A DNA stretch of 64,000 nt, taken from positions 374,084 to 438,083 of the forward strand of contig MU001683.1 in the NCBI GenBank assembly GCA_010093515.1, written 5' to 3'. Shown here one piece after another: positions 7,921 to 46,689 of this stretch. The notes under the pieces were generated by a model, which was not told where the DNA came from, did no database searches, and was given only the letters and a program-made list of their open reading frames with translations. The stretch's first letter is position 1. Each line of letters opens with the position of its first letter. Position numbers and translations under genes: made by a program. The DNA comes from Lineolata rhizophorae (Eukaryota > Ascomycota > Dothideomycetes > Lineolatales > Lineolataceae).

Positions 7921-10133
7921 GGGAGCAGTTGTGGAGGGGTTTTGGTTGTTCGGTGTGTTTTGGGCCTTGGTCACGAGTCTTGTGATGGGTTTGTGGAATG
8001 GAGAGCTGCGGCTATGTACGAGATAGGTACGAGGTATGGGTGAGATGGCTGCGATCGCGCTTTTGGATAGGGACGCTTCGATGTCCCGTCGTCTATCGGG
8101 CGCCTACATTGTATGGGTATGGGTCCATTGCGAGATGATGGTGGCATTTGGTGCCGGGCGGCAGTGAAGGGAATGGTCTCAAAAAGGAGGTGGAAGGAGG
8201 AGGAGCGGTTATTGTTTCCTTTGCTGCTGGTGTAAGCCCATGCCCGTTGTCTTTTCTTTTCCTTTTTTTTTTCTCATTTCCATTCGATGGGCGGGCTCGT
8301 CATCTGTGTTAGGTCCATCTGTCCAATTGATTCACCGTCATCCATCGGTTTGGTTGGTCATCGTCGGCATTTGCTGGGAGATGCATAGGGCCCGATATGG
8401 GCGAAAGGCGGTCGAGACAGATCGAGCAGGCGGGCGAGCGAAGATACGGTGCACGAGTGAAGGAAGCAAAGCACATGGCGTTTGTTTTTGATTGAGTTTT
8501 TGTTCTCTTCCATTTTCTTTTTTTCATTTTCTTTTTTTCATTTTCACATCGTCGCCGGATCGGCGGCTAAGAGAGGCAAAAAGCATGTGATCCGTCCATC
8601 ATCGAAACGAATGCAAATGGGAGTTGTCTGTGTTTTCTTGTTTTTCCGTCTTATCTTCCGCATTTCTCTTTTCATTTTTCAGTCTTCTGTTTCCGTTTGC
8701 GTCCTGTGTGTCTTGCTCCCTGGTTGTGTGCTTTTTCTCTGTGTTGCCACTGGGTGCTTTGTATCATCGTCCCGTGTAGTCAAGAAGAGGCTGTTTGAAA
8801 ACGCTCTTAGGTCCTTTTTTTTTGGTTTGCGGTTTTTGTTGGCCTCAAGAACTGGGGCTATCGATAGTATATACCATGGTTAGAAAGACTAGCAAAAGAT
8901 TCCTATTTTAAAATCGTCACGGATGGATGCGAACATGGAATGGGGTGTGAGACTGAGACGAGAGTGGAAGGACGGGAGTAAGTAGGGGCATGTTTAAATG
9001 GTGGAGAAGCTGATCCATGTTCTCTAGTCTGATGATTAGCAAGACTATTTCACTGACCGTGGAGACTTCATGCAGGAACGATGACCACGTGGTACCGTGA
9101 AGATCTAATGATGAGCTTTTGGGAACGTCAGTACTATGTAGGTCTCACAAGACTCGTTCCCTCACCAGTGACGACAAGATAGCATATCAACACCGTGATT
9201 AGACTAGTGGGTGCCCCGCGGGTACTAAGTACTTTAAAGGCGGGGAAGCGGTTCCTGACGATCTCGGTGGCAGGCTGAGTCCGGAAGTGAGTGAAATCCA
9301 CGTCTCGATTACTAGACTTTTCGGAAACGGTCAGTTAGCGTGAGCGTAGCCGGCAGGCAGCAATTCGTCATAGCAATTCAACCCAGCATTTAGAACTTGA
9401 AAAAATGGATGACGCATCGTCGATGAGACCAATTCATGGACCGATCTACTGAAGAGCTATTCAATGCTATCGTCGCTGTATGGGAAGCTATGCTCGCCCA
9501 ATGTCGCCGGCGTATAACGTGATAGACCGGCTGCCAGCGCCCATTGGAGTCAGCCCGCGTCGCACTTACTTGCTCTCCGCAACTGCGAGGCATAAGTCGC
9601 AGCGCCCAGGACAGCATCATGACGTCCGCAAGCCCCGGCCCGGCCGGATCTTTGTGCGGTTCGGACCGCAAGCTAGTTGCCATTGGCAATTCCGCACGTA
9701 TACTTAAATTTGCAATCGAGAGCGCGGCATTCGCCGGAACGGCTCTCCTCATGCTTCTGTCCTTCATCGCTGTGCAAAAGCTAGGTACCTAATCTGCTAA
9801 AGGCGACGGAATTGAACTACGACCTACCGTAGGTAGCTAGTCGCTATCTCGACGCCCGTGGGTGGGCCATTAATACATCACACCACCGCGCGCCGTGCCG
9901 CAATCGCACCGCGCCGCCGCCCGAACGACTCCAATTAAGATAAAAAAGAAAGAAAACTGGGCCTTTCCTCCCCTCTCTCGTTGTCCGTCACCACCTAGCC
10001 GCAGCAGGGTCCCAAAATACTTTGCCCACCAGCAGACTCCATCCTTGCTTTGCTCCTCGCGTCCCGCGCGCCGCGACTTCGAGACGAACTAGTATCTCGC
10101 AAGTGGAGCCGACGAGAGACGCACGAAACAACA
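7921..10133. other. Intergenic, no gene recognised
   Basis: The first part should be 3' untranslated sequence of the polymerase gene. T-rich runs at 8,235-8,280 and 8,500-8,560 and a T-rich stretch to about 8,830 carry no supported frame. From about 9,890 the + strand turns C-rich, which fits the leader of the acetate kinase gene. Confidence 0.5.
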
Positions 10134-11637
10134 ATGCCCGTCATCCTGTCGGTCAACGCCGGCTCGTCCAGCCTCAAAATCTCGGTCTACCACTTCGATC
10201 CATCCGGCGCTGCCGCTGCCGCCGCCGCCGCCGCCGGCGGGGCTGGTGGTGGTGGCGGCCCCGCGGACCCCGCCACCGCGCCGCCCCGCGAACTCGCCGT
10301 CGCGCAGGTGAACGGGCTGACGGCGCCGCCGCCCGTCTTCACGTACGAGCTAGCGGGCGATAGCGGCAAACGGATCAAGGAGACGCTGGACGGGATCGAG
10401 GGCCATGAGGGCGCCTTCGCCAAGATCATCGACAGCCTGGTCGCCGACGAGCACGTTCCGGAGTTGAAGGAAAAGGGCGACGTGCGCTTCGTGTGCCATC
10501 GCGTCGTGCACGGCGGCGACTACCCGTCGGCGCATCGCATCGACGAGGAGATGTATCATCACATTGCGGAGTTGTCGGACCTGGCGCCGCTGTAGGTGAA
10601 CCTCTTGCTTTTCGTTGGCTTTGGGTCCTATAATCGTAGAGCGCGTGGGAGCACGTAGTTGGTTTGTTCCCGCGGCAAGGAGGGGGTCATCACGATATCT
10701 ACCAGCGGCGTCTTGGAGTGATATCTACTCTCAACAGAAACAACTGACCACCGACAGCCACAACGCCGCCGCCCTCCGCCTCATCCGCACCATTTCCGAG
10801 CAGCTCCCCACGAGCATCCCGCTCGCCTTTTTCGATACGTCCTTCCACTCGACGCTCCCGCCGCACGTCCGAACGTATCCCATCAGCCCAGCGCGCGCGC
10901 AGAAGAACAAGCTGCGCAAGTACGGCTTCCACGGGCTCTCGTACGCCAGCATCCTACGACACACGTCGGCCTCCCTCGGCAAGGCCAAGGAGCGCGTCAG
11001 CATCATCGCGCTGCACCTAGGCAGCGGCGCGTCGGCGTGCGCCATCCGCGACGGGGCCTCGCTCGACACGAGCATGGGCATCACGCCTCTGGCGGGCCTG
11101 CCGGGCGCCACGCGCTCCGGCTCCGTCGACCCCTCGCTCGTCTTCCACTACACCCACAACGCCGGCAAGCCCAGCCGCGCCGCCAGCAAGGAGCTGCACG
11201 TCACGCGCGCCGAGGAGATCCTCAACAAGGAGTGCGGCTGGAAGGCGCTGGCGGGGACGACGGACTTCGGCGTCGTGAGCGAGGGTAGGTCCGAGGAGGC
11301 GAGGCTCGCCTTCGACATCTTCGTCGATCGCGTCGTCGGGTTCGTGGGGAGCTACTTTGTCAAATTGGGCGGGAGGGTCGACGCCTTGGTGTTCGCCGGC
11401 GGCATCGGCGAGAAGGGTGCGAAGTTGAGGAGAGAGGTGGTTAGGGCGGTCGAGTGCTTGGGGTACGGCGTCGATGAGGGGAAGAATGAGGCTGTGGGGA
11501 AGGGCGACGAGGAGGGCGTGGTGGTGGAGATTGGGAAGGAAGGGTGTAGGAGGGTGTTGGTTGTCAAGACGGATGAGCAAAGTGAGATGGCCTTGGGATG
11601 CATGGAAGTGGCAGGGAAAATTGAAGCGGCGAAGTGA
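10134..11637 (+). CDS. ackA: Acetate kinase
   Basis: Two exons, 10134-10591 and 10758-11637, joined across a 166-nt intron, give 445 aa. The enzyme interconverts acetyl phosphate plus ADP with acetate plus ATP. In fungi it is thought to work with phosphoketolase, which makes the acetyl phosphate. The N-terminal phosphate-binding motif is NAGSSSLKIS (residues 8-17). The second signature appears as KYGFHGLSY, and the nucleotide/substrate loop MGITPLAGLPGATRSG follows. The splice restores DLAPLHNAAAL, as in the family. The Met at 10134 directly precedes the conserved VILSVNAGSS, so longer upstream frames are rejected. The oddity is a low-complexity insertion of nine Ala then mostly Gly (residues 26-42) between the first two strands. 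No phosphoketolase gene lies in the window. Confidence 0.95.
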
Positions 11638-12116: not shown

Positions 12117-13934
12117 ATGGCGCGGTACAGCGTGATGGGAGTGCTCTGGATGGTTCTGGGACTCCTTCTGCTGGGAAGGCTTTCCGCTAGCGCGGACGAC
12201 CCATTCAACAATCCGCCCGGAGTGGACATTTGGTGCGGGAAAGCATACCGCCCAGAGTGAGAAATACCAATTCAACCTCCGTCACCATCCAGCGCTAACA
12301 ATTATTTTTCTGTTGCCAGAGATGCCGCATTTGATCCGGGTGGGTGGCTTAACGCTCCGGAGCCGTCCCGGTTCCTGCTTCTCGACCTCCGCGTGTTCCC
12401 GCGAATGAGCGTCTACACTGCAGACGACAGTGAGGGATCGTTTATCCTAGAGGCCCGAACATCGCGTACCCGTGGGATACCGTACTGCTCCGGGAATATC
12501 CAGCGCCACGACGTGTTCTCCGTCGATCCCGTGGAACTGGCATTTGAAGTGTCGGATGCCGAGACGGGCCGCACTCTCGTCACGGGACTCGAAGCCCCGG
12601 CCCTGTCGATTTCGCATGAAGTTAGCATATCTATCGGAGACTTGATGCCGCGGTTTGCCCCTTACACTATCAATGTCAAATTGATACTCCCAGATTGCGA
12701 TCAAATATACACTACATCCACTAAGATTTTCCGCCTTCCGCGGAGAGATGACGGTGGAGGAGTTACTAAGATTGATCAATTGTATGGAGGTCTCATGGTG
12801 CAAGATTACCTGTCGAACTCGACGGAGTGGAAGCCGTTGTTCCCATTCTCATATTATGTGAGTTGGGGAGGCTGGCTCGAACAAGATTTGACGCAAGTCG
12901 ACGCGTTCAAGGCTGCCGGGTATAACATCATCCACGTCGTTCCCGGGGGAGGCTATCCTCCAGTCAACTGGACCACGTTTGAGCAGTTCTTCGACCTATG
13001 CGACGAGCTCGGGCTCTGGGTGATGTACGACCTTCGCCACACGTACCAGAACCGCACATTGCTATCCGATCAAATCTCTCGGTTCGCGAGCAGGAAGAGT
13101 CTGCTTCTCTGGTACACTGCAGATGAGCCGGACGGCCATTGCGATCCGCTCGAGGCTCCCAAGACTGCTCTTGGCCGGATCCGGGAGCTTGACCCTTGGC
13201 ATCCCGTCTCCCTGTGCCTCAACTGCGCGAATTTTCACTACGAGGAGTACTCGGCAGGCGCGGACATCATCCTGTCCGACGTGTATCCGGTCGCGGTAAA
13301 CACGTCGTACTCCGAGGTCTACGGGACCGTGTGCAACACGACGTACGGCTGCTGCGGCTGCGACAACTGCGAAGGCCGGCTCTCGGACGTATCCGACCGC
13401 CTGGACGCCTTCCGGCGGTATCAAGACTGGCTCGGCACCGCGCCTCCCAAGTCCTTCTGGGGCGTGCCCCAGGCGTTCGGCGACGAGATGTTTTGGCGCC
13501 GGAACCCGACTCCTGAGGAAGAGGTCGCCATGGTCGCGCTTAGCGTCAACCACGACGCCAAGGGCATCGTGGGCTGGATTTACCCTACCACGGACAGCAT
13601 CGCCGCGGCGACAAGAGCACTGGCAAGAGTGGTCACCTCGGAAGAGATTACCGCTTTCCTCCTGGGAAGTTCGACGCAGAGTTTGGAGGTGCATTCGCCG
13701 CCAGCCGCCGTGGACGCTGCCGCGTGGGTCCGAGAAAGCAAGATGCTGGTGAGCGTCGTCAATTCCGGTCGCGCAACTCAGGCCCGTGTGTCTATCATCT
13801 TGCCCGAAATGGTTGTTGGGATTGCAGCCAGCAAATGGGGCGATGGCTCTGGGTGGAAGGCAGCAGGAAGAGAACTCAGCAGGAACGGCCTGGGGAAGTA
13901 CGAAGTGGACATCGTGGTGCTCGACTTGGCTTAG
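12117..13934 (+). CDS. Secreted glycoside-hydrolase-like TIM-barrel protein
   Basis: Two exons, 12117-12256 and 12320-13934 (63-nt intron), give 584 aa. Residues 1-26 form a signal peptide with a Leu-rich core ending in SASA. The N-terminal 180 residues look like a beta-rich domain. The middle reads like an alternating beta/alpha barrel: GYNIIHVVPGG, then LGLWVMYDLRHTY, then LLLWYTADEPDG, then ADIILSDVYPV, then KGIVGWIYP. Glu316, in the DEP motif at the end of a predicted strand, sits where GH clan A enzymes carry their acid/base residue. A Cys-rich loop (GCCGCDNC) and N-glycosylation sequons fit an extracellular protein. The C-terminal 100 residues may be another beta domain. I cannot place it in a numbered family, and hydrolase activity is inferred from fold cues only. 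Confidence 0.8.
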
Positions 13935-15282
13935 ATGCCTACTAGGACGTCCCTTCGTCCTGTCAGGAGTCCCGACGGATGTTGGTTTCCCGCCATCCCG
14001 CGTTCCTGGGAACAGGCCAGTCGTAACCATGTCACGCTCACAATTCAATTTCCTTGCTTTTCGGCGGTCTCCAAAGCCGAGATAGAGTGCCTGCAATTGG
14101 AAAGAGCACGGCCTATATGAAAGTGGGGCTATTTAGGCAGTTCCGTGAGGACGACGAGACTCGCCGCCGCCGGAGAGCCACTTCCCTTTCCGGGTCATGT
14201 CGGTGCACTTCCGGGCGGGTGCGTGCTCTTGCCGTGCGCATGGTGGTTCCCGCTGGGGTCTTTGCCCTCTAGGGTCTCTCCAAATCGGAATATTGTCTTC
14301 ACTTGTCAGGCGTCCTTGCCTCTCGTCGGTGGCGCGTCACGCCTCTAGTGGTTTGGTTCAGGGTCGTTAGCCACCCATTCAACCAAGGGTTGCCATTTCG
14401 AGAACAGGGTTTACCGTCCCGCGGAACGGTTCCCCGCCGCTTGCGTATTGCAATTCCACAATTCTCGTTGCCCTATCGGGATGCTTCACTGCCAAACCCA
14501 GCCAACACTAGAGCATGTAGAAATCGCCAAGAATATTGCTGCAGCGCATCATCTATACGACAAGTTTGCAACAGATAACTCGAGTGGGTTGTGACCAGCT
14601 GTCTCAACCCCAACAGTTGTTGTCTTCCCGTCCTAGGTACCTACGCGGGATATTCGTGGTCATGCCCCGCGGCAGTTGAGCAGCCCGCCCCACTGCCTGT
14701 ACCTGCTATCTAGCTGTGGCAATGTACTTGCCCTAGTAGTTGAGGCTACAGCAACGCCGCGGTGCTCTCCCAACCACGGCTGTGGGTACGCAATTGGCCC
14801 CATAGGTCCCTTGTTCTGTGCGGATTGGGGAGCCGGGATCTATAGTCGCCCCTCTTCGGCATTCATTGCTTCCACATACTCTCCGACTAGCATGGACAGC
14901 ACGTCGAGCTTGCCCCGGCCTCCATGTCAAGGTTGGAGTACCACGGATTGGGAAGGGCCCAACCGAGGTTCAAGCGGTCCCGACCCAGCCCATCAGTCCT
15001 GTTGTTGTGGAAACTTCAGTTTTCCGGCCTGCGGGAGGCAGGCGCAGGGGGAGCAGCCAGGGTTGCTGGCCCAGCCATAAAAGACCCCTCCATCCGCTCG
15101 GTTTGCTTCCTCTGCCTTCACCATCACTCCGCTCTCCGTTAGAGAGTATCATTCAGCGAGACAGCAGTCTTATCCTTCGTTTGATTTTTGCATCCAGTCA
15201 GTTACTGTTCGTTTCATCTCCCCGGACTCCTCCATCCAGCCCTGCGGGCCGTTACCTTCTTCGCGCCTTTGTGGTCGCCACG
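13935..15282. other. Intergenic region with promoter of the repeat-protein gene
   Basis: No supported frame. The last 200 nt are pyrimidine-rich (CTTCACC and CTCC runs) downstream of a TATA-like box at 15077, which fits a transcription start near 15,110 and a leader of about 170 nt. Confidence 0.5.
15077..15083 (+). promoter_or_regulatory. TATA-like box
   Basis: ATAAAAG lies 200 nt upstream of the start codon at 15283, just before a strongly pyrimidine-rich leader. The position is plausible for a core promoter, but the motif is short and could occur by chance. Confidence 0.4.
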
Positions 15283-18200
15283 ATGTTGTTGAAGAACGTA
15301 GGTCTGTTTGTAAGTCGCCCCTCGGTTTTCTTCATGCTGTGGCCTCACCTTGGCCTTCATCCATAACTCTTTGCACTGAACCGGCGATTGATACCCGTTG
15401 TGGGCTTGTTACTTTTTCATTCTTCATGTGCTACAACTTCATCTCGAGTCTTCCATTGCTCTCTCTGTTTGCTGCCCTAATGACTTTCCTGTTCCTTCAC
15501 CGTGCTTCTCCCCGGCTTGACACTCTTGGATACGTCCCAATATCCCAAGTTGCCTCAGTCAGAATACACCGCTGGCCCCTGCGCAGCGCGGTTTTGTCCG
15601 GATTTTTGTTCAACTTTTTATCACGCTCCGCTCACCTTTCTATTTATCCGTCACTTTTTTTTCGATCATATCTTACCTTCACTCCGTTTCGTTCTATTAA
15701 ATCCTCAAAGCAATGTGGTTTGCCTGCCACTTTATCAACTTTCCCAGCCATGAAATCCCTGGACATTTTCAATGCTTCGAGCTTTTAGTTTTGATACTAG
15801 TTTCCTTTCGAGTCTTTCACCAGTCACTACGTATCGAAGCCTACATAGTTCTAATATTTAACAGGGCCTCTGGAGCGCTTCTTTTCTGGCCTACGCCGCA
15901 GCCGTTCCCCTCGTGCCTAGGAACGTGTCAGCCGTCACCAACACCAACGCTGCCAACGATTGCGCCAAGATCAAGAAGGAGATTGATGGCTGGTTCACTC
16001 GTGAAGAAGACGATTGCCTCAAGAAATGTTTCAGCAATAGCCTCACACACGCCGATGAGCTCTTGGGCGCGATTTACACAATGAAGCACAGCGAGCACCA
16101 TTCGAATCCTTGCATTCTAGCGTGCATTCCGGACAAGGAGCTCAAGATCAAGATCAAGATCAAGATCAAGAACAAGCGTGGTGGCCATCGCGATGGACAA
16201 TACGACCATCCTGGCAAGGATAACAAACACGACTTCAACCACATGGAGCAGGCCTGTCTCTCCAAGTGCTTAGGCACTGGGGAGTGTGCTCGATTCGAGG
16301 CCGAGCTCCTCCGGAACAAGGCGGCTGATCTCCAGATGTGCTTCAATGAGTGCATTCCGGACGCGAAGGTCGACCTCAAGATCAAGATCAAAATCGAGGA
16401 CGACGAGGAGCGCTCTGCCAAGGCCCCGGATCGGGACGAAGAGCTGCACATGCCTGGCCACCCGCCCATGGGTCACAAACCCTTCTTTGGGCCCAAGAAA
16501 GGTAGGCCTGACTTTGGACTCGGGGAGGGCAAACCCCACTTTGGATCCGAAGAAAGCAAGCCTCACTTTGGACCCGAAAAGGGGAAGCCATACTTTGCGC
16601 CGGAAGAGGGCGAAAAGCACTTCATCATCGAACCTGTCGAGGATTCGAGAGAGTCATCTCACGATTTTTCCGGCGCTCCGTCTAAGCCCTCTTCTGGTTC
16701 TAAGGCCGGCGGGATCCCGGAGTTCTTCGAGCCTGAGTCTGATGACAAGGATGACGACTCCGACTACAAGGTTTATCACGTCGTTCTCGCAGGCAACTGC
16801 ACGGTCTCAGCGAAAGAGGAAGACGTTGTGAGCTGCCCATTCAAGGACCACGGACCGGCTAAGGTAGTCCCGAGGTCGATCGCATCCGCCGAGGACGGTT
16901 CTGGGCCAGACGCGATTGGCAAAGATGCTGAAACCACTTTCGCCCTTCTGGAGGCCCAGGATGGGCCATTCAAGCTCAAAAGCAAAGGCAAGTTCAAGTG
17001 GAACAAGCGCGAAGAAGACGAGCAATCCGCGGAGGCCGACGGGAGCGTGACCGACGCAAGCACCAGCCGGTTGCAGACGCGGCGTGACCGTGACAGGGAG
17101 CTCGACTATAAGCACTACGAGAAGAACAGGATCGAGCTCGATGATCGCCGCCGTCACAAGGCGCGTGGCGTGGAATCTGCGAACGAGGCCGGAAGACGCG
17201 ATCGCGACAGAGAGCTCGACTACAAGCATTCCGAAAAGAACAGGATCGAGCTCGATGATCGCCGCCGTCACAAGGTGCGCGACGTAGAAGCGGCGGACGA
17301 GGCCGCCACTGCTGGAAGACGCGACGACGACAGGGAGCTCGACTACAAGCACTACGAGAAGAATAGGATCGAGCTTGACGATCGCCGTCGTCTCAAGGCG
17401 CGTGGCGTAGAATCTGTGGACGACGGGGCCAATGTCAAAGCGACGAACAAGGAGCACGGCTTTCCTGGGGAGCACGACCTTTCCGGGGAGCACGACCTTT
17501 CCGGAGGACACGGCTTTTCCGGGGAGCACGGCTTTCCCGGAGGACACGGCTTTCCCGGAGGACACGGCTTTCCCGGGAGCCTCGGCTGGCACGAAGAGAA
17601 GAAGCCAAGTCTGCTGGAATTGCTCCAGAACGCGCCTGATTTTGACTTCAGGGACAGGCACCGCACTCGATTCGAGGCCGAGCTCCCGGACGAAATCCCC
17701 GACAACCGCGACCGCGACCGCCATGACGGCCGCCATGGGCCCAACTTCGACCACCCCCCACCTTGGGTGAAGGATATGATGCTCAAGTACCCTCCCAATG
17801 GTCAGTACGACGGCGGCCGTGGACCCAAGGTCGGCGGAGAACACCAAGCACCTTGGTCAAATGGCGGCGAGCATGGACCCAAGCGCGGCGACGAACATCA
17901 AGCGCCTTGGGCAAAGGGTGGCGAGCATGGACCCAAGTTCAACGGGGAAGATCAAGCGCCTCGGGCAAAGGACCTGTGGGTCGAGACTCCTACCAAACAC
18001 GGCCATCCGAAGAGGGAAGTTGAAACCCACGATGGCAATCAGGGAGACCAATGCGCGGAGGACGATCGCGATGGAGAGTGGGGTTTTGGGCATGACAAAT
18101 GGGGCAACTGTGCCGGTCATAGCGGAATATACGCCGGGCCGTCCAAGGAACCCGTCAATAAGGATAAGGCGGATGTCGCGCCCTTCAGCCTCAAGGACAA

Positions 18201-18855
18201 GAACAAGACCAAATTCGAAGGCCAAATTCCGCACCCCCCTCAGGAACATCAGGATGACCACGTTGGGCAATTTCCTGATCACTTTCGTTGGCACCATCCC
18301 GAGCCCTGCATTGAGAACTGCTATGTCCATCAGCCAGAAGCCTCGTTTGCCCATGCAAAGAGGTCTGAGGCCAGTGCAGATACCAAAAATGGGGGGCCAA
18401 GCATCCCAGGAGGGTTTGGACACGGACATGACGGCAACGGGCTTCTCGACTTGTTGAAGTACAGCGACGAATGGAGTCTTAGGGACTCGCACAAAACCAA
18501 TTTTGACGTTGACGTCCCGGATGGCAACCGCGGTCGTGGTCGCGGTCGCGGTCGCGGTCGCGATCGCGGCCGTGATCATGATGACGATGACGAGAGGCGT
18601 CGTGAGCCGGAGTGGCTTGAGGGCGGCAAGCCGGGATTCGGCAAGCCGGGATTCGGCAACAAGGGCTTTGGCAATGGCAACAAGCACGGCGTACCCAAGT
18701 GGTTCCGCCATAGCTATGGCTTCTCCGATGGCTCGAGCGAGGCCGACAAGGATGCCCATAACTGGATCGAGGACGAGAACGGCCGTCACGACCTCCTACA
18801 GTCCAAACCTTGGCAGCACTTCGACGGGAATGCGCATGGCAATATGCACGCCTAA
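15283..18855 (+). CDS. Secreted repetitive hydrophilic protein with CX3C pairs and Lys-Ile tracts
   Basis: Exon 1 (15283-15309) codes nine residues. A long 555-nt intron leads to exon 2 (15865-18855), giving 1005 aa. The join builds a signal peptide (about residues 1-22, ending AYAAA) that neither exon has alone. Module 1 has Cys at 42, 60, 64, 92 and 96; module 2 has Cys at 140, 144, 150, 168 and 172. Both contain two CX3C pairs, and both end in CIPD followed by alternating Lys-Ile. Then come three DRELDYKH units, seven hexads of GHGFPG type, EHQAPW units and an Arg-Gly run. A degenerate motif of DxxxTxF type recurs (RDRHRTRFEAELPD, KDKNKTKFEGQ, RDSHKTNFDVDVPD). Lys-Arg sites (NKRE, PKRE, AKRS) could be Kex2 targets. 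I recognise no family. A cell-wall, matrix or precursor role would be inference. The long intron might hide a further small exon. Confidence 0.75.
16144..16170 (+). repeat. AAGATC hexamer repeat coding Lys-Ile
   Basis: AAGATC is repeated four times plus a final AAG, in frame as alternating Lys-Ile. A second, shorter copy occurs at about 16,378-16,395 after the second Cys module. Alternating charged/hydrophobic residues would form an amphipathic beta strand. Confidence 0.9.
17083..17430 (+). repeat. Three 111-123-nt tandem coding repeats
   Basis: Units start at 17083, 17197 and 17320. Each encodes about 38 residues with RDRELDYKH, then EKNRIELDDRRR, then an acidic linker. The cores are nearly identical and the linkers vary in length, which suggests recent tandem duplication within the secreted repeat protein. 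Confidence 0.85.
17452..17577 (+). repeat. Seven 18-nt coding repeats (Gly-His hexads)
   Basis: Seven six-residue units vary around (E/G)HGFPG, two of them as EHDLSG. High identity at the DNA level points to slippage or unequal exchange. Confidence 0.85.
17820..17971 (+). repeat. EHQAPW-type coding repeats
   Basis: Three imperfect units of about 54 nt encode GGEHGPK followed by EHQAPW or DQAPR. They form the fourth repeat class in the same secreted protein. Confidence 0.75.
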
Positions 18856-30660: not shown

Positions 30661-32408
30661 ATGGGTCCCACGATGCACCTCTCGCGGTCCGCTCTGGCGG
30701 CCGTGGCGTCGCTCCTCTCGTTGGCGGCGACGGCCACCGCCCTCTCGTTGGAGTACTGCTCCGACTTCAATACTGGCCAAGATTCCGAGTCCAGTGAGTT
30801 CCCCTAGCGCAAACTTTTGCCACCGCCCGTGGCTGCCTGCTAACCACCTGCACAGTGTTTTGGACTTGGCAGTCAAACGGTTGGTGCCACGACCAATGCC
30901 TTGGAGACTACGCCTTTGCCGTGGTCCAGGGCAACTACTGCTGGTGCTCCGATTATATTCCCGCCAACCAAGAGGATACCGGCGACTGCGACATGGACTG
31001 CCCGGGATTCCCCGACGAGAAGTGCGGCAATGTCGACGAGGATCTGTTCGGTTACATCGCGTTACCGTCGGTGAGCCCGTCGGGGACTATGGGACCGTCA
31101 CCCTCCAGTTCTGAGGTGCCCCCGTCCACTAAGGTGAGTGCTTTCTTTTTTCCTTAACTTTTGCCTGCTTTCGCCTCGGTTTAATGGCACTGTTTCGAAG
31201 TTTCTTATGGTCGCGTCCGCAGACTTCTGCGTTGCAGTCCGCAACCGTATATACATTTTCTTTTTCGTCATCTACTGCGCTGGTCACGCCTACGTCCTTG
31301 TCCATTACATATACCCCATCTACGCGCCGAAAACGGCCTACGACGTCTTCTGTTTTTACGTCTGAATCTCCTGTTACATCGTTACGAACATCAAGTCTTA
31401 CCTCTGAGCAGAGTCCAACGGCTCAGCCAACTTCTCGTTCTCCTTCCCCTACGTCCTCTGATGAGCATGGCTGGACCGAGTCCAGACATGATGATGGTAC
31501 ATCGACGGAGCTGGCTCCGTCGCCTACTTCTTCAAAGACGCCTGTACGTCTATTATTATCTTTGCTGTACAGGTCGCAGCTGACATTCCCTCCTTAGGTC
31601 ACGACTTCCGATCCTCCTAGGACTACACATGACTCCACACCCGACTCTACGACCGACCATGAACCAGTCACTACCCGCGATTCTACCCGCGGTTCTACCC
31701 GCAACTCTACTCCCACGACCGACCCTACCTCTTCTTGGACGCCCACGCCGGTCACATCCGTTGAAATCATCACGATCTCAGGTGCTGCTGTCACAAAGAC
31801 GGTCACGTCGACTCCAACAACTCCTCCCGAAGCGGCTACCCAGCGCGCCGAACGCAAGCTATCCGGTGGTGCAATTGCCGGAATTGTCATCGGGGTTCTC
31901 GGCGCACTTGCCTTGATTGCGCTGGCCGTCTTCTTCTTTTGCTTCTACCGTAGGCATCGTAGCGGTAGCGATGCTGGTGACGATGAGTCTGCGAAGCAAC
32001 CTCCTCGCCGGAACACGTCCGTCCTTTCTAAAGTCGGCCTTCTTTCCGAAAAGCATTCACCTGCTTCGGTAGCGCCCACTGCGATCGTCCCACCGGTGAA
32101 TTTGAACAACAATGGGGCGACTTCGGATAGCACGGATCCCAATAGCCCGGTTTCGGACAAGCGCGCAAGTAGACCGATGTTTTACGACCAGCGCTTGAAC
32201 CCGTCTGCCTTGATGGACCTAGACAATGGGTCTCGGTCCAGCATGATTACCATGGAGGACAACCGTGATTACACCAGAGCCCTCAACGTAAGTTCCATAC
32301 CCTGTTTCTGCATCTGTGCAAGAGTAACCTTGGCTTCAGGTCCGTAACCCAGACCCCGACGGTGTTTCGCTGGCCTCCCATCAGGTTCAAACGCCGGCCG
32401 CGAAGTAA
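30661..32408 (+). CDS. WSC-domain cell-wall stress sensor
   Basis: Five exons (30661-30793, 30856-31133, 31223-31543, 31598-32287, 32340-32408) give 496 aa. A signal peptide (about 1-28, ending TATALS) is followed by a WSC domain (about 33-115) with eight Cys, including WCHDQC, YCWC, DCDMDC and KCG. Next comes a long Ser/Thr-rich mucin-like stalk (about 120-330), then a membrane helix (about 334-358, AGIVIGVLGALALIALAVFF) stopped by YRRHR. The cytosolic tail keeps the blocks MFYDQRLNPSALM and RDYTRALNVRNPD seen in fungal Wsc1/Wsc3 tails. Such sensors detect wall stress by stretching and signal to Rho1 and the cell-wall-integrity MAP kinase path. All junctions keep frame, and the last exon is only 69 nt. 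Which paralogue it is cannot be settled here. Confidence 0.93.
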
Positions 32409-44640: not shown

Positions 44641-46689
44641 TTACGAAGAATTGAGCTCTCCGTTCACCCCAACCTGAAACCGAGGCTGGCCTCGCTGAAG
44701 ACCTCGTCCTCTCCGCCTCTCTTTGCTCCCATTCGCGCTAGAATTAGCTACATCATTGTCAGCATTACTAGGATGTACTTATGACCGCTTTCTTTGATAA
44801 ATTTCTTATGCACGTACCCTGTGAAGCGGACAAGCTTGACCCTGAGGTGTTTCGACCCTGCTTCTGGGCAGCTTTGGTACCGCCTATTCTGCGCTCCGCA
44901 TCGGGATTCGAGTTGTTCGTCACCGGGACTCTGAATTTCGGTTGTCCAACTGCCGGTCCTGAATCTTCCACATTGCTTCGCAAATCTTCAGTAGGGTATG
45001 TACTCCGTGGCCGTTGGTTTTTATGTTTTGAATTTCGCCCTCCGATCACCAACCGGTTCTCAAATTCCGCTCTTTTCGGGCTACCCGCTGTTTCAGTGTC
45101 CTCATGTAGAGATGTCGGATACTTTGGGCCCAAATCAAACATCTTGCCATGTGTTCGATCTGATGCCTTTGGCGGCTTTGATTTGGTGACCTTTGGATTA
45201 TATACGAACTGAACAAGATCCTTGCTATTTTCGTCCCCCAGTTGCCACCATGGAGGCAAGTCGCAAACTGGCTTTTTCATCCATACATTACGGCAATGTA
45301 TGCAGTACGCTGCAGTTCTTGCTTCTCTGGTGAACGGAGGTGGACGCTTGTCCTTGCATCCGCAACACAAGGAACTTGTGGTGTAGAAGCATGGAATCAA
45401 CTTTTTGTGGTTGCAAGGCTCACTTCCTCCCGAGGGCCTGGAATTGCTCGTATTTCCTTGCGACTGAGTTGGATTCCAACGTTGAGGGTCTAGTTTTTTG
45501 GTTGTAGCGACGGCCTTTCGAGGTTTGGGAGGTTTTGTTGTTGCAGGCGCCATGGTTTTGGGCCCAGGTGGTAGCTGTTGTGTCGGAACAGGAGGCGGCG
45601 CCAATATCGGCGAAGGCGCTATTTGAGTGGCAGGTGCAAAACTCATAGGCCGAGGGGCTTCTACTCTTGGAAGGGATGTCGAGCTGTACCGAGAGCTCGC
45701 GCCCGGAGGGTATCGCGAACTTGGACGGTTTGGCAGGATAGCTGTCGAGCTCAGAGACGAACTCATCGGGACACTTGAGGCTGGTGGCTGGTACGCATTT
45801 GGCCGGCTGAGGGGTGCTGGCGCATTCCATAGCGACGCTCTTCGTCGGCGCTGGCGGCGCCGACGGAGACGACAACAGCACCACAAGCTAATGCATAGCA
45901 TGATCAACCCTCCCACAGCAATACCCGCCGTTATTGCGAGCGAAATCGGCGTGTTGAAGTCAAATATCTCGTATTCTCCGTCCGAGTCTGGGGAGCTCGA
46001 CGAGGCTTCCAAGTTTGCCGTGGATACCCAAGATGATGGGATGACCATACTAATTGGAAATTCCATGACAGTGTAATGAGTTGTAGCCGGTATAGTACTG
46101 ATGACTTTGGAGGAAAATGTTGTATAGATTCCATATGCCTCTGTTGGGTTTCCCACTTCATCCGACAACGTAACCAGGCCATAAGCAATTAGCCACAATG
46201 TCTCCGGCGCTGAAATACGACTGCAGCATACGTCTTCCCCTAAAAAATTCTGCGCTAAGGTGGGGTAGTTGCTATGGGAAATTAACTTTAGCTATATCGC
46301 CCGTACTACGAAGGATGGAGATTCCAAACTCACGAGGGACAGCATGTAACATAAAGATCATCGAAGCGGTCAGATTTGGAGTATATAGTGCTGTATCCAT
46401 CTGGACAGCCCTTTGCCGGTGAGAAATAGAAGCCGGTATACCATTGTGTGTTGGGTGGATCGCAGGTTGTCCCATCCACCGAACGATCTGTAATCAAATA
46501 TCTGCCATGCCTCCACGCAACAAAATCCTCAGAAATGACTTCTGGTGCGTACTCTTGACAACCTTCATTGCCACAAGTTCCTCCAACGAGTATAGGTGTT
46601 GGTGTGGCGCACGAAGGTGGAGGAGTAAATATCGTTGTCAAGGGCGCGACATGTGTGGTGCTGGCAGCCGTGACCGACGTTACCGCCAT
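44641..46689 (-). CDS. Single-pass membrane protein with cytosolic Cys cluster
   Basis: Three minus-strand exons (46689-46334, 46271-44818, 44747-44641) give 638 aa. The outer part has paired Cys (GGTCGNEGCQEYA, GCPDGYSTIYS, VTCCPS, EDVCCSR) in a layout common to fungal surface proteins with a Cys-rich ectodomain, Ser/Thr linker and one helix. There is no clear signal peptide. The helix is at about 228-252 (SLAITAGIAVGGLIMLCISL) and is stopped by CCCRLRRRRQRRRR. The inner half is Pro/Ser-rich and then carries a Cys/His cluster: C405, H407, C413, C421, C422, C424, C442, C445, suggesting a metal site. The last exon is predicted from a GTACGT donor and adds a short basic tail. If it is not used, the frame ends at 44768 with 619 aa. 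Function is unknown. Confidence 0.8.

What the first reader, a model, noticed from the sequence alone, without database searches (positions are those of the whole stretch)
15283..18855. Large secreted protein with paired CX3C modules, Lys-Ile tracts and four repeat classes
After splicing, a 1005-aa protein with a signal peptide appears. Two N-terminal modules each carry two CX3C pairs (C60/C64 with C92/C96; C140/C144 with C168/C172), the spacing expected of a disulphide-stapled helical hairpin like the twin-CX3C fold, but here in a secreted protein. Each module ends CIPD followed by alternating Lys-Ile, an amphipathic strand pattern. The remaining 800 residues are highly charged repeats. A motif of the type DxxxTxF followed by a PD-rich tail recurs at least three times. 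I know no family with this plan, so it is the best candidate here for an undescribed component of wall, matrix or host interface.
Basis: partly seen in the sequence, partly recalled or inferred. Interest (0 to 1): 0.72.

Follow-up and report, generated by a model that had tools for sequence, protein, structure and literature searches.

The report
Orphan secreted fungal cysteine-hairpin repeat protein
A filamentous fungus carries a gene for a long, probably exported protein with two small cysteine-paired modules followed by a highly charged repetitive tail; the gene looks real, but its job and its relatives could not be established with the databases on hand.

Summary
A 27-nt exon, a 555-nt intron and exon 15865-18855 encode 1005 aa with a signal-peptide-like start. 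Two diverged copies of a CX3C-Xn-CX3C-IPD-(KI)n module are clearly related (z 8.8, 0 of 500 shuffles), and the cysteine spacing is far from chance. A weak AlphaFold model of module 2 puts each CX3C on its own helix. Three dispersed DxxxTxF units form a second family. No Pfam family passes its cut-off and no solved protein matches well. The pattern CxxxCIPD occurs twice in 31 Mb, both in this gene. No fungal collection could be searched, so the number of relatives is unknown. I favour a secreted matrix or wall-surface polymer with a disulphide-stapled head and a charged, probably disordered tail (0.4). The main rival is a Kex2-cut precursor resembling pumpkin PV100 (0.27); it fails one published criterion for KEX2-processed repeat proteins. 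Interesting, but orphan secreted repeat proteins are common in fungi (recalled).

The parts
15077..15082 (+). TATA-like ATAAAA, 206 nt upstream of the ATG
   Evidence: pattern found; function not shown
15283..15309 (+). exon 1, residues 1-9 (first part of the signal-peptide-like segment)
15310..15864 (+). 555-nt intron (GTAAGT...CTAAT...AACAG); a second usable donor GTAGGT at 15298
   Evidence: no RNA evidence
15865..15903 (+). rest of the signal-peptide-like segment (residues 10-22; AxA-type cleavage site near 20-22 judged by eye)
   Evidence: 19-residue hydropathy maximum 1.71 in windows starting at residues 1-30, 0.70 in the rest; no predictor run
15910..15921 (+). LVPR (25-28), fits the expanded Kex2 motif LxxR
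   Evidence: motif from PMC8528282 passages
15943..16179 (+). module 1 (residues 36-114): C42, C60xxxC64, C92xxxC96, IPD, KIKIKIKIK, ends NKR
16144..16170 (+). Lys-Ile tract of module 1 (K103-K111), encoded by a (TCAAGA)5.8 repeat
16240..16398 (+). module 2 (residues 135-187): C140xxxC144, C150, C168xxxC172, IPD, LKIKIKI
16485..16610 (+). 9-residue repeats of the type KPHFGPEEG
16969..17010 (+). third alternating Lys tract FKLKSKGKFKWNKR (378-391)
   Evidence: (strand moment 0.88)
17092..17423 (+). 2.8 copies of a 123-nt (about 41-aa) charged repeat; each of three copies holds a 22-residue core preceded by RR and ending in RR (417-438, 455-476, 496-517)
17450..17577 (+). Gly-His-Phe-Pro six-residue repeats (GGHGFP)
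17584..17802 (+). DxxxTxF unit U1 (583-655)
17820..17971 (+). 18-aa repeats of the type GGEHGPK..EHQAPWAK
18184..18384 (+). DxxxTxF unit U3 (783-849) with the fifth CX3C (C824/C828)
18424..18650 (+). DxxxTxF unit U2 (863-938) with LLDLLK and an Arg-Gly tract (18529-18577)

Best explanation
A secreted, non-enzymatic structural protein of the hyphal surface or extracellular matrix. Shown on sequence grounds: gene structure, signal-peptide-like N-terminus, duplicated cysteine module, charged low-complexity repeats, no second strongly hydrophobic segment. Inferred: in each module the CX3C pairs staple two helices (outer Cys to outer, inner to inner), and the odd fifth Cys of each (C42, C150) could link the modules or molecules. 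The Lys-Ile strands that follow would give edge strands for intermolecular beta-sheet or for binding anionic wall polymers. The 800-residue tail, a Gly/His/aromatic-bearing polyampholyte, would act as a disordered, hydrated, possibly coacervating filler.
For: The modules look like old duplicates: they have drifted to about 30% identity yet keep all four CX3C Cys, IPD and the Lys-Ile strand. The three Lys tracts have strong strand amphipathicity (moments 1.09, 1.11 and 0.88 at 170 degrees). Residues 29-1005 are 35% charged with net charge per residue -0.04, Gly 11%, His 6%, aromatics 7.6%. No Pfam family, catalytic or other, passed its cut-off, and there is no second hydrophobic stretch of membrane-span strength. 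Helix-loop-helix of module 2 predicted weakly.
Against: Ser+Thr is only 7.6%, and no C-terminal hydrophobic GPI-type tail is seen, unlike classical fungal wall mannoproteins (recalled). No localisation, expression or homologue data. Structure models are low confidence (mean pLDDT 50.1; 60.5) and no significant fold match was found. In the model of both modules the Lys-Ile tracts are strands; in the module 2 model the tract is not. Disorder, assembly and coacervation are untested.
Confidence: 0.4

Rival explanations
1. A secreted multi-product precursor cut by a Kex2-like protease: LVPR28 and NKR114 free module 1 as a cationic cysteine-hairpin peptide, and RR sites free the 22- or 41-residue charged repeats. 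It would work like plant precursors that carry alpha-hairpinin modules with other domains (pumpkin PV100: signal peptide, two Cys motifs, six Arg/Glu-rich repeats, vicilin-like domain).
For: In-silico cutting at KR/RR gives three near-identical 22-residue fragments bounded by RR, and isolates module 1 up to NKR, directly after its Lys-Ile tract. RR is above chance (11 against mean 4.5; 85 of 20,000 shuffles reach it), more weakly so with the tandem copies collapsed (6 against 3.0; 1,332 of 20,000); RK is absent (27 of 20,000 shuffles as low; 170 of 20,000 collapsed). Module 1 has net charge +3. PV100 plan: PMC7191063 passages.
Against: KR sites are not enriched (5 against mean 5.8, or 4.5 collapsed). 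The LDDRR sites have Asp at P3, reported as unfavourable (PMC8528282 passage). The 22-mer repeats cover 6.6% of the protein, or 12.2% if counted as 41 aa x 3, below the 15% threshold of PMC6339444 (passages). UstYa-family matches exist in the genome (4) but none lies on the window's contig.
Confidence: 0.27
2. A secreted effector or host-interface protein of a plant- or animal-associated fungus.
For: A signal-like start, cysteine-rich head, repeats, an LxxR pro-site and no recognised family are all compatible with effectors.
Against: 1005 aa is large, and the fungus's lifestyle is unknown. Of 30 window ORFs scanned (of 152 listed), those with a Pfam match over the cut-off are housekeeping or metabolic types. 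No expression data.
Confidence: 0.13
3. A metal-binding surface protein that uses its many His and acidic residues and the Cys pairs.
For: His 6.3%, Gly-His repeats, the HHPEPCIENC stretch.
Against: No Pfam metal-binding family passed its cut-off.
Confidence: 0.07
4. A mitochondrial small-TIM relative rather than a secreted protein.
For: Sub-threshold zf-Tim10_DDP match to module 2 (E 0.001, 19.0 bits against a cut-off of 22.3, two stretches). Tim10 is weakly hit by the two-row profile (E 0.078 and 0.084). A Tim9-Tim10 chain tops a non-significant fold list (E 1.5).
Against: Signal-peptide-like N-terminus; spacing 27 and 23; the best stretch covers 16 residues of one half-motif.
Confidence: 0.02
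5. Artefact: wrong gene model or a chance ORF.
For: No transcript evidence; 349- and 312-aa antisense ORFs overlap; codon usage unremarkable.
Against: One ATG and one acceptor in the single-intron scan; duplicated modules and synonymous excess in this frame.
Confidence: 0.03

Closest known systems
Plant alpha-hairpinins and their multimodular precursors (PV100, MiAMP2, Sm-AMP-X)
   Same: Signal peptide; several modules with CX3C-Xn-CX3C and helix-loop-helix; extra cysteines occur; PV100 also carries charged repeats (PMC7191063 and PMC11591084, passages seen)
   Different: Fungal; Xn 27 and 23 (the latter with a cysteine inside) against a published range of 4-20; Lys-Ile strand after each module; no vicilin-like domain; no sequence match shown
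Small TIM (zf-Tim10_DDP, PF02953) twin-CX3C proteins
   Same: Two CX3C on antiparallel helices (recalled for small TIMs); weak half-motif match
   Different: Signal-peptide-like start, longer spacing, below the curated cut-off
Fungal KEX2-processed repeat proteins (KEPs)
   Same: Signal-peptide-like start, three near-identical fragments between RR sites
   Different: Repeats cover under 15% of the protein; KR not enriched
Synthetic gel-forming peptides with alternating Lys and hydrophobic residues (MAX1 and the KIKIKIK-bearing kind)
   Same: Alternating Lys/hydrophobic strand pattern (abstract starts in a search listing only)
   Different: Synthetic; here natural, short and attached to a cysteine module

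Membership tests
alpha-hairpinin | two CX3C pairs in one module (C-x3-C-(X)n-C-x3-C) | tested here: met
   definition from PMC4695807 passage
alpha-hairpinin | n between 4 and 20 non-cysteine residues | tested here: not met
   n is 27 (module 1) and 23 with C150 inside (module 2); range from PMC11591084 passages
alpha-hairpinin | two antiparallel helices with two disulphides | tested here: inconclusive
   module 2 model has helices at residues 135-145 and 162-172, mean pLDDT 60.5; disulphides and helix packing not measured
alpha-hairpinin | antimicrobial or inhibitor activity | not testable with these tools
   needs a peptide assay
zf-Tim10_DDP (small TIM) | score over the Pfam curated cut-off | tested here: not met
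   19.0 bits against 22.3 at best
zf-Tim10_DDP (small TIM) | mitochondrial intermembrane-space protein without a signal peptide (recalled) | tested here: inconclusive
   signal-peptide-like N-terminus by sequence and hydropathy; no predictor or localisation data
KEX2-processed repeat protein | signal peptide and at least three similar fragments between KR/RR sites | tested here: met
   by inspection; the paper's SignalP and Fimo steps were not run; criteria from PMC6339444 passages
KEX2-processed repeat protein | repeats cover at least 15% of the protein | tested here: not met
   3 x 22 of 1005 aa is 6.6%; 3 x 41 is 12.2%; threshold
UstYa-type RiPP precursor | UstYa gene next to the precursor gene | tested here: not met
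   the four PF11807 matches lie on C10 (two), C22 and C42; the window is on C14; the search scores best candidates only

The most novel reading that the evidence does not exclude
A fungal family of secreted proteins that has independently arrived at the plant PV100/vicilin-buried plan: disulphide-stapled helical hairpins plus charged repeats in one precursor. Each hairpin is fused to a Lys-Ile beta-strand; in module 1 the strand is encoded by a hexanucleotide repeat, so its length, and with it assembly or membrane activity, could change quickly between strains.
Probability: 0.2. Interest if true: 0.6.

Novelty: new variant of a known kind. Interest (0 to 1): 0.36.

Why it matters
If confirmed, it would put paired CX3C hairpin modules in a secreted fungal protein, joined to a repeat-encoded amphipathic strand, giving a concrete candidate for a matrix or defence component. 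If it turns out to be a lineage orphan with no phenotype, it is one more fast-evolving secreted repeat protein.

Tried and rejected
Relatives: none confirmed in viral contigs (152 pattern stretches) or prokaryote genomes (582); a fungal relative would not be expected in either. Own genome: the N-terminal 204 aa (E up to 10) and the C-terminal 812 aa (E up to 1) each match only themselves. The Lys-[IV] tract pattern gave 21 matches; one is in this gene and the other 20 are A-rich repeats (AAAATA, AAAATT and variants), not AAGATC (whether they are coding was not checked).

Weak family matches below the cut-off: PAN_1 and PAN_3 to the two modules together, and EBNA2_Core (E 0.002, 17.9 bits against 35), EIF4E-T and C19orf84 to the Arg-Gly unit; DUF3283 and zf-Tim10_DDP to the whole exon-2 protein. 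I treat the Arg-Gly ones as composition.

Weak internal resemblances, of 55 block pairs compared: M1/U3 (7 of 500), M2/U3 (3 of 500), R41/U1 (6 of 500), U3/U2 (6 of 500); not pressed.

Organism: no 5.8S rRNA was found (39 of 869 candidates scored). A fragment of ribosomal protein L3 is closest to chains 8oo0 and 7olc, then 7r81, which I recall as Chaetomium thermophilum and Neurospora crassa. This suggests a Sordariomycete; species not determined. The tubulin search and the P450-reductase-type PDB search support no claim here.

Print: no paper on this protein was seen in the listings; the last searched six of its own peptide strings and found 0 papers. One search scans bacterial promoter types and is not informative for a fungus.

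Full report
Gene. The window lies in a genome held as 30,968,845 bases in 48 contigs; a ribosomal L3 fragment is closest to solved chains that I recall as Sordariomycetes. The finding's gene model stands up: a 27-nt exon at 15283, a 555-nt intron and a 2991-nt exon code for 1005 aa. Exon 2 has no Met before residue 82, so without the splice the signal-peptide-like segment would lack a start. The scan of canonical single introns left one ATG, one acceptor and two donors 12 nt apart. The intron is long by fungal standards (recalled) and no transcript was available. The + frame of the 123-nt repeats shows 23 synonymous to 16 non-synonymous differences over three copy pairs. One antisense frame has a similar ratio (20 to 16) but contains 7 stops. 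Average codon usage does not discriminate between the strands.

Head. Two modules, residues 36-114 and 135-187, share CLxKC, CxxxCIPD and KIKIKI. Their alignment scores z 8.8 with 0 of 500 shuffles as high; identity is 28-30% depending on the ends. Each module has four cysteines in CX3C pairs and one more (C42, C150). The pattern CxxxCIPD is found twice in the whole genome, both here; the reversed control pattern also has two matches. Folding the two-row alignment gave a helix-loop-helix for module 2 with one CX3C on each helix, at moderate local and low overall confidence; the Lys-Ile tract was not a strand there, though it was in the poorer model of both modules. The Lys-Ile tract of module 1 is a hexanucleotide repeat of 5.8 units, so its length may vary between strains (inference). 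A third alternating Lys tract, FKLKSKGKFKW, precedes NKR391.

Tail. Seven tandem arrays were found over the gene, one of them the Lys-Ile repeat, and three dispersed DxxxTxF units are related to one another: U1/U3 z 8.7 and U1/U2 z 7.8, 0 of 500 each; U3/U2 alone is weak, z 2.7, 6 of 500. Residues 29-1005 are 35% charged, nearly neutral, Gly- and His-rich and poor in Ser/Thr. I read the tail as a disordered polyampholyte; no disorder predictor was run.

Families. Pfam has no family over its cut-off for the exon-2 protein or for seven pieces of it. The PDB has no sequence match up to E 10 for the exon-2 protein, and three weak ones (best E 0.078), two of them Tim10, for the module profile. No fungal protein collection could be searched, so the number of relatives is unknown. 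That is the chief limit of this report.

Function. Two readings compete. In the first the intact protein is a matrix or wall-surface polymer. In the second Kex2-like cutting releases module 1 and the charged repeats. For cutting: LVPR28, NKR114 and three RR-bounded 22-residue fragments, with RR above and RK below shuffles. Against: KR at chance level, Asp at P3 of the LDDRR sites, and repeat coverage below the published threshold. The plan of signal peptide, two cysteine motifs and charged repeats recalls pumpkin PV100 (PMC7191063 passages), as an analogue and not as a relative: the spacing of 27 and 23 lies outside the published alpha-hairpinin range of 4-20. I put 0.4 on the structural reading and 0.27 on the precursor reading; both are inference beyond the sequence facts.

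Noticed in passing
window 12261-13931 (+): Neighbouring 557-aa ORF without a Pfam match that reads by eye like a glycoside-hydrolase-type barrel protein.
   Followed up: no
window 31598-32344 (+): Thr/Ser/Pro-rich stretch followed by one hydrophobic segment and a basic tail, by eye like a fungal wall-stress sensor.
   Followed up: no
window 16807-17856 (-) and 17857-18795 (-): Long antisense ORFs of 349 and 312 aa opposite the gene, with codon scores like the gene's own; probably by-products of its codon make-up.
   Followed up: partly
window 9999-11634 (+): Acetate kinase split over two reading frames, 9999-10592 and 10600-11634, probably by an intron.
   Followed up: no
window 44771-46291 (-): 507-aa ORF with one hydrophobic segment and a Pro/Ser-rich tail by eye; weak TM_ErbB1 match below its cut-off.
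   Followed up: no
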